Assembly: GCA_021797635.1 (NCBI GenBank)
Contig: JAJZZI010000002.1
Span: 1-37,090, forward strand
Direction: 5' to 3'
Origin: Bacillota bacterium
Lineage (GTDB): Bacteria > Bacillota > Sulfobacillia > Sulfobacillales > Sulfobacillaceae
Length of the DNA: 37,090 bases
A model generated the notes under the pieces. It saw nothing but the letters and a program-made list of their open reading frames with translations. It had not been told where the DNA came from and did not search any database. Made by a program: the position numbers and the translations under genes. Numbering within the stretch: position 1 is the first letter of the stretch; every line of letters begins with the position of its first letter. Shown here in pieces: positions 1 through 11,502 of the stretch.

Positions 1-59
1 GGCCCATCCTTTCTTCCTTATCCTGTTACCTTACCCGCTCACACCTGAACGGAAATACC

Positions 60-4483: not shown

Positions 4484-5062
4484 ATGGTGCGCTCAGCCCT
4501 AATCGTGGTGGATGTTCAGGTTGACTTTTGCCCCGGGGGAGCGCTCCAAGTCCAGGACGGCGACGAAGTGGTGCCCGTGTTGAATCGGTGCCTAGCCCAC
4601 TTTGAGCATCAAGGCCTGCCTATCGCCCTCACCCAGGATTTTCATCCTGCGAACCACGCCTCCTTTTCGGCACAGGGAGGACCTTGGCCGCCCCACTGCG
4701 TTCAAGGGACGGTAGGAGTCGACTTTCACCCTGACTTGTTGGTGCCTGCATCCGCCGAAATCTTTCGCAAGGGCACTGACCCCCGGTACGATGCGTATAG
4801 CGGATTCCAAGCCAGGGACGCGCGAGGTCTTTTGCTCGAGCAGTGGCTAAGACAGCACGAGGTAGATCATCTTGTCGTGGGTGGCTTGGCCACCGACTAC
4901 TGCGTTCAAGCGACCGTCCTCGACGGCCTCGGCGCCGGCTTCGCGGTGACGGTGCTGCAAGTAGCCATTCGTGGCGTTAATGTCCACCCTGGCGATTCAG
5001 AGGAAGCCCTCGTTAAGATGGTGGCAAACGGCGCCCAAGTTCTTTCCCAATACCCATTTTAG
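4484..5062 (+). CDS. pncA: Nicotinamidase (PncA)
   Basis: Hydrolyses nicotinamide to nicotinate for NAD salvage in the cytosol. The 192-residue protein has the Asp10-Lys96-Cys140 triad (VVDVQVDF, FRKG, GLATDYCVQ) and the metal ligands Asp52, His54, His58 and His71 (QDFHPANH, WPPHCVQG). The DYCVQATVLDGL segment is typical of nicotinamidase rather than generic isochorismatase. An AGGAGG ribosome site lies 4 nt before the ATG. The DUF58 gene starts 15 bp downstream, so the two are probably cotranscribed, although no functional link is known. Confidence 0.95.
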   Translation: MVRSALIVVDVQVDFCPGGALQVQDGDEVVPVLNRCLAHFEHQGLPIALTQDFHPANHASFSAQGGPWPPHCVQGTVGVDFHPDLLVPASAEIFRKGTDPRYDAYSGFQARDARGLLLEQWLRQHEVDHLVVGGLATDYCVQATVLDGLGAGFAVTVLQVAIRGVNVHPGDSEEALVKMVANGAQVLSQYPF

Positions 5063-5077
5063 CAAGAAGGAGTCCCT

Positions 5078-6355
5078 GTGGCCACTTCCGACATGTCCCA
5101 TGGTCGTCATCCCGACGAACAAGTTTCCATCGAAGTACAGCGCATCGGGAACACCCGTCTCGCCGCCTTTTTAGGCATCCTCGTGCTGTTGATTGGCGCC
5201 GTCAGTCACCACTTTATTGTGGTCTGGGTGGGATTTTTCGTCTTAGCGTTAATGGTGTTTGCCGAACAGATGGCAAGCCTAACCTTTCGCCACTTAAGCC
5301 TCCGGCACCAATTCCACGCGATCACGGCGGAAATCGACCAGCCCATCGAAGCTGAACTCATCGTCGAAAATCCCCTGCCATGGCCCGTGGGCGAGATCCA
5401 TTGGGAACTCGATGTGCCTGAATCGCTTCGATTTGTGAGTCCCGTGGAATCGTCGGACAGCGCGTCAGGATATCGGCGTATCGTGCGGGGCTCGTTAAGC
5501 GTCTTACGTCAAGAACGCCTGCGCGTGCCGTATCAATTAGTCGGCATGCGCCGCGGACGCTTTCAAGTCGGCCCCGGCGTCTTAGTCTTTCAAGATCCGC
5601 TGGATTGGTCTCAATGGGTCCGTCGGACCCATATGAATGATCGGCTGACGATATGGCCCCGCCGCTATAGTCTTCCCCAAGGGTTTTGGAATTCACACCC
5701 TGAACTCGGCAATCGCCACGGACGTCCTTGGGATCCGCCCGATCCCCTGTTGGTTGCCGGCATACGTCCATATCGCATGGGCGATCCGATTCGCCGCATT
5801 CACGCCTACGCCTCTGCCCAAAGCGGTCAGCTCATGGTCAAGGAGGAAGAGCATTTTAATGCGCGCAACGTAGAGGTGCTGCTGCACCCCCAAACTGGGT
5901 TGCATCCCTGGAGCGGCGTGGATCGCGGCGTCCTGGAGGACGCCGTTAGCATCACCGCCACCGTGATCGAACATTCATTAGCAGACGGATTGGAGGTCGG
6001 CCTCAGTATCAGCGCGATTCTGGCTGGCCATCCTCATGGTCTAAGCGAACCGCCAAGCCATGGCCAAGCTACCCGCGCCCGTTTGCTGACCGCCTTGGCC
6101 TGGGTCGAACCCTCGGGCAACATGACGGATAATCTGGCGCGCCACCTTCACCTTTTGAAACGGCGCATCGCGCGAGGCGGCGTGTTGGTGGTAGTTGCGC
6201 CCATCTGGCCAAATGAAGTAGCCCCAGAGTGGGATAGCCTCAGAGAACGCGGTGTCCAAATCGTATGGATCACGCTAGGCAGCCTAACGGACATGCCCCT
6301 GGCCGGGGCCCATATCCGATGGCGCTGGCAGGAAGGCGGATGGAGCCGTGAATGA
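5078..6355 (+). CDS. DUF58 domain protein with two N-terminal membrane segments
   Basis: A 425-residue protein starting with GTG, supported by AAGAAGGAG a few nt upstream. Two adjacent hydrophobic segments (about residues 27-65) are followed by a soluble beta-rich region and a DUF58 domain marked by YRMGDPIRRIHAYASA and GQLMVKEEE (about 230-265), with a von Willebrand A-like fold after it. DUF58 proteins normally work with a MoxR AAA+ ATPase and a transglutaminase-like membrane protein, in envelope-related or chaperone-like roles that remain poorly defined. Here the next gene overlaps by 8 bp and is membrane-bound, but no MoxR gene is in the window. Function is unassigned; the domain call is firm. 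Confidence 0.85.
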   Translation: MATSDMSHGRHPDEQVSIEVQRIGNTRLAAFLGILVLLIGAVSHHFIVVWVGFFVLALMVFAEQMASLTFRHLSLRHQFHAITAEIDQPIEAELIVENPLPWPVGEIHWELDVPESLRFVSPVESSDSASGYRRIVRGSLSVLRQERLRVPYQLVGMRRGRFQVGPGVLVFQDPLDWSQWVRRTHMNDRLTIWPRRYSLPQGFWNSHPELGNRHGRPWDPPDPLLVAGIRPYRMGDPIRRIHAYASAQSGQLMVKEEEHFNARNVEVLLHPQTGLHPWSGVDRGVLEDAVSITATVIEHSLADGLEVGLSISAILAGHPHGLSEPPSHGQATRARLLTALAWVEPSGNMTDNLARHLHLLKRRIARGGVLVVVAPIWPNEVAPEWDSLRERGVQIVWITLGSLTDMPLAGAHIRWRWQEGGWSRE

Positions 6356-7471: not shown

Positions 7472-7897
7472 TTAGCCGGATGCCGGATCGTCGTGCCAGG
7501 CTTCGCTGCCATCGGCCCATAACTCTTTCTTCCAAATCGGTACCGTCTCTTTGAGCCGGTCAATTCCTCGCTGGCAGGCTAAGAACACGGGGCCGCGGTG
7601 GGGACCGGAGACGGCCACCAGGACACTCGCCTCACTCACAGCGAGGCGCCCCACCCGATGTCGCATCACGACGTGGCGCACATCAAATTCCTCTTTGAGC
7701 GCCTCGCCGATGCGTCTCATCTCCTTTTCAGCCATGGCCTGATAGGCTTGATATTCAATCCCCTGCGAAGCACGGCCCTCAAATTCATTGCGCACTACGC
7801 CTAAGAAGGCCACGATGCCTCCGCAAGCAGGGTCAGACACATCCGCCAGTGCCCGTTCGATGTCCAACCCGTCAGTGGTGACTTCATACCGATCCAT
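7472..7897 (-). CDS. moaE: Molybdopterin synthase catalytic (large) subunit
   Basis: With MoaD, converts precursor Z (cPMP) to molybdopterin. The 141-residue sequence carries the MoaE pattern throughout: GGIVAFLGVVRNEFEG, HRVGRLAVSEASVLVAVSG, HRGPVFLACQRGIDRLK and VPIWKKELW, whose Lys residues form the active site. A GGGAG site lies 8 nt before the ATG. Its partner moaD is on the same strand but about 2.7 kb upstream, beyond a decayed gene and an IS607 element. No other molybdenum cofactor gene is nearby. Confidence 0.95.
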   Translation of the reverse strand: MDRYEVTTDGLDIERALADVSDPACGGIVAFLGVVRNEFEGRASQGIEYQAYQAMAEKEMRRIGEALKEEFDVRHVVMRHRVGRLAVSEASVLVAVSGPHRGPVFLACQRGIDRLKETVPIWKKELWADGSEAWHDDPASG

Positions 7898-8133
7898 TGC
7901 GTCTGCTCCCCATCCTCTTCATCGCCGCCGTCGATCGGCGAAAAACTCCTCACGGTATCAAAGCCCTTCCTAGCAAGTCTATCAAAAGTTTAAGCAGACG
8001 CGTTTCCTTCTGACCATTTTCGGCCGCATGCTATCTGGAGCGAACGCAAAACCTGCCAGGAATCCCGTATCCCTCCCATGCTAACCTGACCATAGAAAGC
8101 AGGCCTTACCTTATAAGCAAGGAGGACAGCCAC

Positions 8134-8461
8134 ATGCCATGGCCTTGGCCAGCAAGGCGGCTCTCTCCTACGCGAAAGACGAGTTGGGAGGTGTTCCCTC
8201 ACGCGAAAGGCTCTCAAGGCATTAGATCACCAACGATTCACCATCCAGGCGACGGTGGGTGGCGCGAAGCCACCCTCCGCACGATCCTTCTTCTGGATGT
8301 TCGGCGCGCTCAAGATGGCCTTCTTCTCACCGATCATCTCTGGTTCACCTGTGGCACGACGTTCGACCGTCTTCATCTGCATCCCGGCGACCGCATTCAG
8401 TTCGACGCGCGCGTCGCGCCTTACGAAAAAGGATATCAGGGCCCGCGTGCAGAGGAAACGG
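8134..8461 (+). pseudogene. Conserved hypothetical gene, 5' part, frameshifted and cut by the IS607 element
   Basis: An AAGGAGG site at 8119-8125 precedes two close ATGs (8134, 8139). The coding signal moves through three frames: from 8139 MALASKAALSYAKDELGG...SRERL; from about 8216 KALDHQRFTIQATV; from about 8250 GWREATLRTILLLDV, TDHLWFTCG, LHPGDRIQFDARV and YEKGYQGPRAEET. Each change is a -1 shift, as two single-base losses would give, possibly with a small deletion near 8250. The last frame stops at the left end of the mobile element; the missing C-terminus continues at 10415 in frame. The continuity pattern resembles small conserved hypothetical proteins with a TDHLWF...PGD.I.FDARV core, from memory only. 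No function is assigned. Confidence 0.7.
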
Positions 8462-8520
8462 GAGGCGGTAACAGAACATGATTACGTGGACGAGTATAGA
8501 CATGCGTGGAAAATAGTGCC

Positions 8521-9144
8521 ATGGATAAACACTACAAACCTCACGAATTTGCCCAACTGGTGGCCGTTAGTGTGAAGACCCTACAACGATGGGATACCTT
8601 GGGACGATTAAAGGCACACCGTAGCCCAAGTAATCGGCGCTACTATACGCATCAACAACACCTCACGTATCTTGGTGGGAATGCGCCGTCTGCTGATCGG
8701 TATGCGGTCATTTATGCTCGGGTCTCGAATCGTGCACAAAAAGATGATTTGGCCAATCAAGTGCAATTTCTACGGGAGTTCGCGAATGCGCGAGGTTGGA
8801 TTATCGATCAGGTCATTGAGGATATCGGGAGTGGGTTAAACTATCGTCGAAAGCATTGGAATACTTTGCTCACCGATGCATTGAACGGCAAGGTGTCTCG
8901 CGTGGTCGTCGCGCATAACGATCGCTTTATTCGCTTTGGGTTCGAGTGGTTTGCGGAGTTACTAAAGAATCATGGGGTCGATTTGGTGGTCGTGCATAAT
9001 GAGCACCTATCCCCGCAAGAAGAATTAGTCCAGGATTTAGTCTCCATTATCCATGTTTTTTCGTCCCGGATTGATGGGCTACGCAAGTACAAGGCCACAA
9101 TTAAGGGGGATCTTGATGTTAAAAGCGTATCGGACGGAGATTAA
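8521..9144 (+). CDS. tnpA: IS607-family serine recombinase TnpA
   Basis: Transposase of the element. A MerR-like winged helix comes first (HEFAQLVAVSVKTLQRWDTLG, with NRRYYT wing), then a serine recombinase domain beginning YAVIYARVSNRAQKDDLANQ with Ser69 as nucleophile, and the conserved Arg-rich segment RVVVAHNDRFIRFGFEWF. At 207 residues it has the normal IS607 length. The ATG at 8521 (MDKHYKPHEF) matches the usual family start; an in-frame GTG at 8506 would add five residues. Neither has a strong ribosome site. The 3' end overlaps tnpB by 29 bp. Confidence 0.93.
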   Translation: MDKHYKPHEFAQLVAVSVKTLQRWDTLGRLKAHRSPSNRRYYTHQQHLTYLGGNAPSADRYAVIYARVSNRAQKDDLANQVQFLREFANARGWIIDQVIEDIGSGLNYRRKHWNTLLTDALNGKVSRVVVAHNDRFIRFGFEWFAELLKNHGVDLVVVHNEHLSPQEELVQDLVSIIHVFSSRIDGLRKYKATIKGDLDVKSVSDGD

Positions 9145-10267
9145 ACCCACCCCGGAACAACGACAACAGATCGTTCGAACCTTTGGCGTGTGTCGGTACT
9201 TGTATAACTTGTATGTGGCGACCAACCAAGATCGATACCATCAAGGATTACCTTTTCTATCAGCCTATGCTTTTGATAAGTGGATCAATCGGGAGTATGC
9301 CCGAGCGTATCCGTGGATTAAAGCGGTGTCTTCCAAAGCTCGGAAAAATGCCATCGTCAATGCAGAGGTGGCCTATCGTCGATTCTTCAAAGGGCTTGGA
9401 GAACTGCCGAAATTCAAGAAGAAGCATCGACAATCTGCCAGTTTTTACGCCCCGAAGAATAATGCTGGGGATTGGACGGTTGAACGCCACCGGATGAAGA
9501 TCCCGACGTTAGGCTGGGTACGTTTGAAAGAATTTGGGTATCTTCCGGTGGGATCTCGCGTGACCGGAGGAACTCTGACACAGAAAGCCGATCGTTTCTT
9601 TGTGAGTGTGACGGTGGACACCGAACGGCCCACGATTTCCGAACCTCCTAGCGGGGAGGGAATCGGTGTGGATGTGGGGATCAAGAAATTGGCGACCACG
9701 AGTCCAGGGGAAATGTTCCCCAACCTTAACAAGGCCGCGAAAATTCAACAGCTCGAACGCCGTTTACGACGAGCCCAACGCGCTTGGTCACGCAAATACG
9801 AGGAACGAAAACGCCAGGGGCTTCTGGCCAAAGGGGGTCGGAATCTTGCCAAGAATCTGTTGCGTATTCAAAAGTTGTATTGGCGATTAGCTAATCAACG
9901 AGCAGCCTATCGAGAGACGGTGATTCAAACATTGGTGAAAACCAAGCCCATGTTTATCACCGTGGAACATCTCAATGTTCGAGGGATGCTCAAGAATCGC
10001 CATCTCAGTAAAGCGATTCGGGACCAGGGCTTTTATACATTTAAGCAACGGTTAGTGCACTCCGCAAAAAAGTACGGAATTGAGGTGCGAGAGGTCAGCA
10101 TGTTTTATCCTTCCAGTAAGTTATGTTCCCATTGTGGGTACAAGAAACTTGATTTAACTTTAAAGGATCGCACCTACGATTGTCCCCATTGCGGACTCAA
10201 CATCGACCGGGATGTGAATGCGGCGAAAAACTTGGCCCAAGCGGATCGTTACCAAACCATCAGTTAG
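9116..10267 (+). CDS. tnpB: RNA-guided nuclease TnpB (IS607-associated)
   Basis: TnpB proteins are RuvC-type nucleases guided by an omega RNA that comes from the element's right end; they cleave empty donor sites and favour element retention. The 383-residue protein begins MLKAYRTEIKPTPEQ with AAGGGGG upstream, inside tnpA. The three RuvC acidic residues are present: Asp186 (GIGVDVGIKKLA), Glu284 (ITVEHLNVRGM) and Asp366 (DRDVNAAKN). The zinc ribbon Cys337-Cys340 and Cys356-Cys359 is complete. Nothing suggests decay, so it is probably active. The frame can be read from 9053, but the extra 21 residues lie in tnpA and do not match the family. Confidence 0.93.
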   Translation: MLKAYRTEIKPTPEQRQQIVRTFGVCRYLYNLYVATNQDRYHQGLPFLSAYAFDKWINREYARAYPWIKAVSSKARKNAIVNAEVAYRRFFKGLGELPKFKKKHRQSASFYAPKNNAGDWTVERHRMKIPTLGWVRLKEFGYLPVGSRVTGGTLTQKADRFFVSVTVDTERPTISEPPSGEGIGVDVGIKKLATTSPGEMFPNLNKAAKIQQLERRLRRAQRAWSRKYEERKRQGLLAKGGRNLAKNLLRIQKLYWRLANQRAAYRETVIQTLVKTKPMFITVEHLNVRGMLKNRHLSKAIRDQGFYTFKQRLVHSAKKYGIEVREVSMFYPSSKLCSHCGYKKLDLTLKDRTYDCPHCGLNIDRDVNAAKNLAQADRYQTIS

Positions 10268-10435
10268 TTTGACTACCGAGGGCTTCTCGGAAAGTGACGC
10301 CTGGGGAGTGTCAACCCCCGTAGTACCGAGCTTCATGGGAGGCGGGACACGTCGAACCAGGAAAAATCTAGGACGTGGCAAATGTCCACGTTTTAAGGAG
10401 CAGAAGCCTGGTGGGAAGTCGACTATCGACTAGAA
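10150..10435 (+). ncRNA. Predicted TnpB omega RNA (right-end RNA) with guide
   Basis: TnpB guide RNAs overlap the 3' end of tnpB, run to the right end of the element and carry the guide in the flanking DNA. The 147 bp after the tnpB stop are non-coding and contain GC-rich inverted repeats, including the perfect hairpin at 10373-10391. If the right end is at 10414, the guide would be the roughly 16-20 nt starting GAAGTCGACTATCG, in the broken host gene. The 5' limit is a guess; this is inference from family knowledge. Confidence 0.4.
10373..10391 (+). repeat. Hairpin in the right end of the IS607 element
   Basis: ACGTGG (10373-10378) and CCACGT (10386-10391) pair perfectly around a 7-nt loop and are followed by TTT. 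It may be part of the omega RNA scaffold, a recombinase subterminal site, or a weak terminator for tnpB. Confidence 0.5.
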
Positions 10436-10465
10436 CGCCCAACTAAGGCCATCAAACTCCCGTAA
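10415..10465 (+). pseudogene. 3' fragment of the conserved hypothetical gene split by IS607
   Basis: Reading from 10415 gives EVDYRLERPTKAIKLP followed by TAA at 10463-10465, a plausible C-terminus for the 5' fragment ending YEKGYQGPRAEET at 8461. Joining the two at the shared GG keeps the frame. It has no start of its own. Confidence 0.65.
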
Positions 10466-10592
10466 ATTTCTGCCTCGAAATCACTGCCCAGCTGTTTGAG
10501 GTCGCGGCTTTCCGCGTGCCAGCTCTTGTTTGCACAAGGCGCCGACAGGACTCAGGCGGAAGTCGAGGGATAGCCTCTCTCTGAGCTAGGCA

Positions 10593-10844
10593 TTAGCCTC
10601 CGCTCACCGGCGGAATCACCGCAATCTCATCATGGGGCTGAAGGACTTGATCGAGCGGCGCCCAGACATGATTCACGCTAAACATCCACTGTTCCAGCGG
10701 AGCCTGCAAATGAGGCGCCAGAACTTCGCGATAGAGGGTTTCAATCGTGGTGCCCGGGGCCACTTCCAATTCCCATCGGTCACGGTTCATACGGTCGCGT
10801 GCAAACGAGAAGAATAATAACGTCACCGACGTCAAAGGCGTCAT
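10593..10844 (-). CDS. moaD: Molybdopterin synthase sulfur carrier (small) subunit
   Basis: Ubiquitin-fold protein that carries the thiocarboxylate sulfur for MoaE. It is 83 residues, ends in the required Gly-Gly (PPVSGG), and shows the DEIAVIPPVSGG C-terminus and a FFSFARD start typical of MoaD. The start is uncertain: the ATG at 10844 has AAAGGG directly against it (no spacing), whereas a TTG four codons in would have about 9 nt spacing. It is divergent from the L,D-transpeptidase gene across only 34 bp, so their promoters must be very compact or overlap. Confidence 0.9.
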   Translation of the reverse strand: MTPLTSVTLLFFSFARDRMNRDRWELEVAPGTTIETLYREVLAPHLQAPLEQWMFSVNHVWAPLDQVLQPHDEIAVIPPVSGG

Positions 10845-10878
10845 CCCTTTCTCGATATGACCCTATCCTAGGAGGTGT

Positions 10879-11502
10879 ATGGTTCTGCTGCCCATCTTGC
10901 CTGTCCCCTTAAGCGCGGGCGTAGGCGTCGCCCAGGTTGAGCGCGTGGCCTTGCCCTCGCCGCCCTGGCCTTATGGTCTCGGCCCCCATCTCGACGGCGA
11001 CGAACGCTGGCTTAAGATCGATCTCTCCAACCAGACCCTCACCGCATACCAAGGCAGCACAGCGGTCCGCGAAATGCCCATATCCTCAGGAGTGCGCCCC
11101 CAGTGGACCACGCCCAACGGCACCTTTTGGATCTACCGCAAGATTGCGGACGATCGCATGCGAGGTTACGATCAGCGCAGTGGCGAACGCTGGGACGTGG
11201 CCCACGTGCCCTGGGCTCAATACTTCAAGGACGGCATCGCCATCCATGGGGCCTGGTGGAATCACCGCTTTGGCATCCCCAAAAGCCATGGCTGCATTCA
11301 AGTGCCCACCCGGACGTTCAATCCCCATCCAGGCAATACGCCCGACGATGCCGCCTGGCTGTACCGCTTCACCACCGTCGGCACCATGGTTAGGATTGTG
11401 GGGACCACCCCGGAGCGTTGCTTGAGCCAACCTTTGCCCTATCCGAAGGCGTCAACCGTTCTGCTGATTGGCGCCACGTTCGGCGCATCATCCAACCCGT
11501 GA
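10879..11502 (+). CDS. L,D-transpeptidase (YkuD domain)
   Basis: Cell-wall enzyme of the YkuD family, which forms or modifies peptidoglycan cross-links through a catalytic Cys. The domain (about residues 43-175) has His123 (IAIHGAWWN), and SHGCIQV with His137 and Cys139. The N-terminus (MVLLPILPVPLSAGVGVA) is hydrophobic but has no basic residue, so export is likely but not a textbook signal peptide. AGGAGGTG abuts the ATG almost directly; no other in-frame start lies upstream because of a stop at 10858. The last 37 residues lie beyond the domain and overlap the end of lgt on the other strand by 113 bp. Confidence 0.88.
   Translation: MVLLPILPVPLSAGVGVAQVERVALPSPPWPYGLGPHLDGDERWLKIDLSNQTLTAYQGSTAVREMPISSGVRPQWTTPNGTFWIYRKIADDRMRGYDQRSGERWDVAHVPWAQYFKDGIAIHGAWWNHRFGIPKSHGCIQVPTRTFNPHPGNTPDDAAWLYRFTTVGTMVRIVGTTPERCLSQPLPYPKASTVLLIGATFGASSNP

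What the first reader, a model, noticed from the sequence alone, without database searches (positions are those of the whole stretch)
8461..10465. IS607 element inside a conserved hypothetical gene, with the pre-insertion joint readable
The gene fragment ending YEKGYQGPRAEET meets the left end of the element, and EVDYRLERPTKAIKLP-stop starts at the right end in the same frame. Of the possible GG pairs, only 8460-8461 with 10414-10415 restores the frame, so the insertion site is resolved to the base without a database. This also defines the ends of the element, normally hard to see in IS607, which lacks terminal repeats.
Basis: partly seen in the sequence, partly recalled or inferred. Interest (0 to 1): 0.55.

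Follow-up and report, generated by a model that had tools for sequence, protein, structure and literature searches.

The report
IS607 transposon; insertion joint corrected

Summary
An apparently intact IS607 element (serine TnpA, TnpB, RAGATH-18 guide RNA) interrupts a conserved hypothetical gene in a Sulfobacillus-family genome. The proposed joint (GG 8460-8461 with GG 10414-10415) is wrong. A homologue runs RAEETGEAWSALDYRLERP across the site. Eleven of 11 aligned right ends finish AGNAGCAG, then diverge. An 80%-identical copy has an exact empty site in a sister genome that fits an AG crossover. The element is 8465-10403 (1,939 bp), target GGGAG, predicted guide from 10404. Frame could not settle the joint: 5 of 20 nearby GG/GG pairs keep it. 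The host gene also looks frameshifted upstream. Beyond the finding: the target motif of such elements is a Shine-Dalgarno sequence. In 30 of 58 copies, and 22 of 41 recognised ends (56 examined) of a second set, an ATG opening an ORF lies 4-13 nt after the right end (controls 6.4% and 5.7%; AGGAG sites in general 16.8%). The window's own insertion is an intragenic exception.

The parts
8204..8236 (+). Possible 5' segment of the host gene, in a different frame from the rest
   Evidence: Weak match to the L003 protein, 16.5 bits
8257..8464 (+). Host gene (conserved hypothetical), part upstream of the element
   Evidence: Part of the 90-column match to the L003 protein (62 of 90 identical);
8460..8464 (+). 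Target / predicted TAM GGGAG; AG at 8463-8464 is the shared crossover dinucleotide
   Evidence: Position follows from the joint; RGGAG also flanks related copies
8465..10403 (+). IS607 element, 1,939 bp (equivalently 8463-10401 or 8464-10402)
   Evidence: Homologue alignment across the joint, conserved right ends, empty site of a related copy
8521..9144 (+). tnpA, serine transposase, 207 aa
   Evidence: Pfam Resolvase and MerR; NCBIfam IS607 transposase 214.8 bits, cut-off 110 (searched from the second codon)
9116..10267 (+). tnpB, RNA-guided nuclease, 383 aa, overlaps tnpA
   Evidence: Pfam OrfB_IS605 and Cas12f1-like TNB; best PDB match 8iaz, 341 bits
10300..10363 (+). RAGATH-18 RNA (RF03064), core of the reRNA
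   Evidence: 43.3 bits, E 2.3e-6, just under the gathering score 44.9
10391..10403 (+). Right terminus TTTTAAGGAGCAG; contains the SD-like AAGGAG
   Evidence: Alignment of 11 right ends
10404..10423 (+). Predicted guide, 20 nt of host sequence
   Evidence: Inferred from the right end; 20-nt guide as in PMC11061315 (passages)
10404..10465 (+). Host gene, part downstream of the element, to its stop
   Evidence: Continuous with the homologues

Best explanation
An IS607-family element with TnpB and a RAGATH-18 reRNA inserted by TnpA serine recombination at the AG of a GGGAG motif inside a conserved hypothetical gene. It occupies 8465-10403 and appears to have left no duplication. Inferred from the family, not shown: TnpA excises it as a circle through the same AG; TnpB, loaded with a reRNA whose guide starts at 10404, recognises the restored site (GGGAG plus guide) and cuts it, which favours retention of the element. 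The host gene is interrupted and was probably damaged by an upstream frameshift as well.
For: Homologue aligns gaplessly through the AG joint, 125 against 110 bits for the GG joint. The overlap of the two junctions in that register is exactly 2 bp, as expected for serine recombination (sequence). 11 of 11 right ends aligned end AGNAGCAG then diverge, nine independent sites. The panD copy in G006, joined at AG, reproduces the element-free site of G014, same genus. RGGAG lies at the left border of all ten AG-type copies, within one nucleotide. TnpA, TnpB and RAGATH-18 identities. Published TAM of RAGATH-18 TnpBs: AGGAG in 18 of 22 strains, GAGGG in 4 (PMC11061315, passages).
Against: No element-free copy of this very locus in the same species was found; the nearest homologues are about 70% identical proteins. 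The RAGATH-18 match in the window is under its gathering score. The window's target is GGGAG, one base from the AGGAG TAM, and TnpB activity on it is untested. Published IS607 work reports GG termini and targets (PMC6188088, passages).
Confidence: 0.93

Rival explanations
1. One reading: GG core, left 8460-8461, right 10414-10415, about 1,954 bp removed.
For: It keeps the frame and GG is the core reported for IS607 and ISC1926 (PMC6188088, passages).
Against: It leaves a five-residue gap against the homologue; it puts eleven non-conserved bases into the element beyond the end shared by 11 of 11 copies.
Confidence: 0.02
2. A joint one register over: GGAG shared by 8461-8464 and 10397-10400, element ending at 10400.
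For: A longer overlap (4 bp), also in frame.
Against: It adds one residue against the homologue; the CAG after GGAG is present in 11 of 11 right ends with different flanks; the G014 empty site lacks CAG.
Confidence: 0.04
3. On the wider pattern: copies lie before start codons only because the target motif resembles a Shine-Dalgarno sequence and insertions inside genes are lost; the right end has no role in translation.
For: 148 of 879 AGGAG and 137 of 662 GGAGG sites already have an ATG opening an ORF at +4..13. Many right ends (AGTAGCAG, GTAACGG) have no clear SD. In the orthologous pair L050/L051 the last 100 nt of the element are only 79% identical, no better than the 80-92% of the flanks.
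Against: Some right ends carry AAGGAG or GAAGGAGG. In the decayed darA element of G006 and G014 one 100-nt window over the last ~57 nt and the gene start is 99% identical, against 84-91% over 5001-5700 of the element.
Confidence: 0.5

Closest known systems
ISFba1 and other RAGATH-18 IS607 TnpB systems (PMC11061315; passages read)
   Same: IS607 element, TnpB related to 8iaz (341 bits), RAGATH-18 reRNA, purine-rich target like AGGAG
   Different: Target here is GGGAG; activity untested; the passages I saw do not name the AG crossover or the Shine-Dalgarno setting
IS607, IS1535, ISC1926 (PMC6188088; passages read)
   Same: Inverted-order serine TnpA (PDB matches 3lhk, 3lhf, 3ilx, 6dgc, 6dgb); no target duplication
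   Different: Termini and targets there are GG; here AG
ISXfa1 (PMC10711439; passages read)
   Same: IS607 TnpB with a guide RNA running past the right end; dinucleotide crossover
   Different: GG core and GGG TAM there
Group B IStrons (PMC4227781; passages read)
   Same: IS607-type element with G-rich, GG-ending targets
   Different: Carry a group I intron; none found in 7900-11000

Membership tests
IS607 family | TnpA with N-terminal MerR-like HTH and C-terminal serine recombinase domain | tested here: met
   Pfam order MerR 8-41, Resolvase 61-183; NF033518 214.8 bits over cut-off 110
IS607 family | Insertion by exchange of a matching dinucleotide, no target duplication | tested here: met
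   G006 panD copy against the empty site in G014; inferred for the window from homologues
IS607 family | GG termini and GG target (reported for most members, not all) | tested here: not met
   AG in this group; other RAGATH-18 copies end in GG
IS607 family | No terminal inverted repeats | not tested
   No repeat search of the ends was run
RAGATH-18 TnpB systems | RAGATH-18 RNA downstream of tnpB | tested here: met
   43.3 bits, E 2.3e-6, under the gathering score 44.9; the related G006 copy scores 48.1, over it
RAGATH-18 TnpB systems | AGGAG or GAGGG TAM | tested here: inconclusive
   Border motif GGGAG in the window, AGGAG in the G006 copy; cleavage not tested
RAGATH-18 TnpB systems | RNA-guided DNA cleavage | not testable with these tools
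   Needs a biochemical assay
Group B IStron | Group I intron in the element | tested here: not met
   Only RAGATH-18 found in 7900-11000 at E up to 1

The most novel reading that the evidence does not exclude
A widespread group of IS607 transposons homes to ribosome-binding sites: the TnpA target and TnpB TAM (AGGAG or GGAGG) is the Shine-Dalgarno sequence itself, so copies sit between the SD and the start codon of often essential genes, and some lineages, this one included (right end AAGGAGCAG), bring a replacement SD that keeps the gene translated, so that the insertion is tolerated and can be kept as a leader.
Probability: 0.38. Interest if true: 0.7.

Novelty: new variant of a known kind. 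Interest (0 to 1): 0.42.

Why it matters
Correct ends are needed to name the guide and TAM of an IS607 TnpB; an error of 12 bp gives a wrong guide. The AG crossover shows that the GG rule cannot be used to place IS607 borders in this group. If the Shine-Dalgarno association reflects targeting together with a right end that supports translation, it is a simple way for a transposon to enter essential genes without killing the host, and a reporter assay can test it.

Tried and rejected
Rejected: the GG joint, the GGAG-register joint, and frame restoration as proof. RNAalifold on the right-end alignment A1 gave one weak five-pair helix (-2.06 kcal/mol), so no covariation claim is made. RF03064 searches around G488 (2 of 7 genomes) and G515 (1 of 59) gave no new copies. 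The intact homologue L003 matched no Pfam or NCBIfam family and L005 only DUF4131 at E 0.19, so the host function stays unknown.

Limits of the start-codon counts. First set: right-end motifs were chosen after reading these sequences, so 30 of 58 is exploratory. The 58 are 43 of 52 found by regex, 5 more set by hand and 10 from the window's family. L143-L146 had no recognisable terminus and were dropped; L014, L046 and L052 were not counted; L050 and L051 share a site. With ATG, GTG or TTG the count is 37 of 58, against 1014 of 6595 (15.4%). Second set: the regex was fixed before its sequences were seen; 41 of 56 ends matched, and 15 with other termini were dropped. The 56 come from 73 matches in 25 genomes new; 17 were not fetched (16 under the gathering score, one at a contig edge). 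These genomes belong to the same family as four genomes of the first set, so the sets are not fully independent. The AG and GG tallies printed follow from the regex and are not evidence. Baselines come from 20 stretches of 20 kb in six genomes, not from whole genomes. Left ends were recovered for 15 of 108 sequences, seven of which were the queries themselves.

Full report
What is there. The window is contig C185 of a 3.06 Mb draft genome. Between a moaE-like gene (7472-7897, minus) and a moaD-like gene (10593-10844, minus; below the moaD cut-off) lies a plus-strand conserved hypothetical gene interrupted by an IS607 element. TnpA (8521-9144) has a MerR-type HTH followed by a resolvase domain and scores 214.8 bits against the NCBIfam IS607 transposase model, cut-off 110. 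TnpB (9116-10267) is closest in the PDB to 8iaz, 341 bits, the ISFba1 TnpB-reRNA structure. A RAGATH-18 RNA follows at 10300-10363, just under its gathering score; the copy in G006 is over it. Both genes are open over their full length.

The joint. Matches to the upstream protein were found in 4 of 61 genomes, the window's own included, and with the intact L003 protein in 5 of 154 genomes of the class, again with its own. L003 reads RAEETGEAWSALDYRLERPTQAVKI across the site. The joins differ by 15 bp, so both keep the frame. With left positions 8446-8483 and right positions 10384-10423, 34 of 111 identical dinucleotide pairs and 5 of 20 GG/GG pairs keep the frame, so a unique frame-restoring pair does not exist.

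Independent support for the ends. The copy in G006 (L006, 80% identical) matches the window over 8461-10404 and no further. Right ends of the window and ten BLAST-matched copies all finish AGNAGCAG and then diverge: 11 of 11, nine independent sites because two pairs share a site. The G006 copy lies before panD. Its flanks joined at AG give TAAAGGAGAGCGCGTATGCAGTATCGG, and the same locus in G014 (same genus, no element there) reads exactly that. Only the 2-bp AG is shared by both junctions, so nothing was duplicated or lost. IS607 and ISC1926 use GG (PMC6188088, passages). By the same reading the element in the window is 8465-10403.

The host gene. Its function is unknown. A conserved-looking 5' segment lies in another frame from the rest, and about nine residues of the homologues are missing there (the 5' match is only 16.5 bits). 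The gene was probably damaged twice; the order is unknown and an assembly error is possible. An intact homologue exists in G024; the G033 copy has two stops in the aligned frame.

Mechanism. Shown by sequence: identity of the parts, the ends, the AG crossover in a related copy, RGGAG at left borders. Inferred: TnpA inserts and excises through AG; the reRNA ends at the right end and takes its guide from 10404; TnpB recognises RGGAG plus guide at the restored site. The published TAM of RAGATH-18 TnpBs is AGGAG in 18 of 22 strains and GAGGG in 4 (PMC11061315, passages).

A pattern outside the finding. AGGAG is the core of the Shine-Dalgarno sequence. The G006 copy lies between the SD and the start of panD. 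A decayed element in G006 and G014 lies between GGGGAG and the start of a darA-like gene, where relatives such as G012 and G003 have an uninterrupted GGGAGG. RF03064 was searched in 154 genomes of the class (11 with a match) and 398 of the phylum (17). Among 58 right ends, 30 have an ATG opening an ORF of at least 60 aa at +4 to +13, 16 of them at +8, against 420 of 6595 shifted positions. A second set gave 22 of 41 recognised ends (56 examined), against 270 of 4715. The motif alone explains part of this: 148 of 879 AGGAG and 137 of 662 GGAGG sites have such an ATG, against 624 of 12000 random positions. By eye the downstream ORFs look like mutS, dinB, gapA, flgK, pcrA, def and pyruvate kinase, among others (translations; names recalled, not searched). 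Left borders carry the motif: of 15 copies the ten AG-type have RGGAG within one nucleotide, and the five GG-type have GGAGG (3), GAAGG or GGGGG.

The right end. The window's element and some others end in AAGGAGCAG and so carry an SD of their own; many others end in AGTAGCAG or GTAACGG and do not. In the decayed darA element one 100-nt window over the last ~57 nt and the gene start is 99% identical between G006 and G014, against 84-91% over positions 5001-5700 of the element; but its left part (92-95%) and the flanks (91-98%) are also similar, and the other orthologous pair, L050/L051, shows no such peak: 79% over the last 100 nt, 80-92% in the flanks. So use as a leader is a hint from one locus.

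Against the wider idea: the window's own insertion is intragenic; about half of the copies do not lie before an ATG by this test; loss of intragenic insertions could produce the excess over the motif baseline; translation was not tested. After checking I lowered the probability of the novel reading from 0.40 to 0.38 because of L050/L051.

Literature. All ten searches: RAGATH-18 with TnpB (7 papers); IS607, TnpB, serine, excision (7); IS607, TnpB, target site, GGAG (25 with three of four terms, 15 listed); IS607 with Shine-Dalgarno (1; its passages are unrelated); TnpB, Shine-Dalgarno, TAM (3); IS607 with ribosome binding site (2); a TnpB, IS605, ribosome-binding-site mix (16); insertion-sequence terms with AGGAG (1); IStron and SD terms (61, 12 listed); IS607 with AGGAG (1). 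Passages were read of PMC11061315, PMC6188088, PMC10711439, PMC4227781 and PMC13418256; the rest I saw as listings only. A word search of the main text of PMC11061315 found no 'ribosom' and no 'start codon'. I saw no report of IS607 insertion at ribosome-binding sites in these, but subscription papers are not covered.

Noticed in passing
L006 (G006:C182), L045 (G014:C100), L046 (G006:C97), L095-L146, L267-L322: RAGATH-18 IS607 elements frequently lie between a Shine-Dalgarno sequence and the start codon of the next gene, start most often at +8 after the right end.
   Followed up: partly
window 8204-8257: The host gene looks frameshifted upstream of the element, with about nine residues of its homologues missing.
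   Followed up: partly
L045 4314-5757 and L046: A decayed IS607 element before a darA-like gene is shared by two genomes of one genus; its last ~57 nt and the gene start are 99% identical in one 100-nt window.
   Followed up: partly
L267-L284, L306 (G672; 26 RF03064 matches): One genome holds both right-end types, AAGGAGCAG and AAGTAGCAG, in several copies: a natural comparison of ends with and without an SD.
   Followed up: no
L267, L285, L298-L300, L302 and others of the 15 unmatched ends: Further right-end types such as CGTAGCGG and TGTAGCAG exist and were not counted.
   Followed up: no
L036-L044: TnpA relatives at 43-55% identity are paired with far more distant TnpBs (about 24-41% identity in the matched segments), as if tnpA and tnpB were exchanged between elements.
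   Followed up: no
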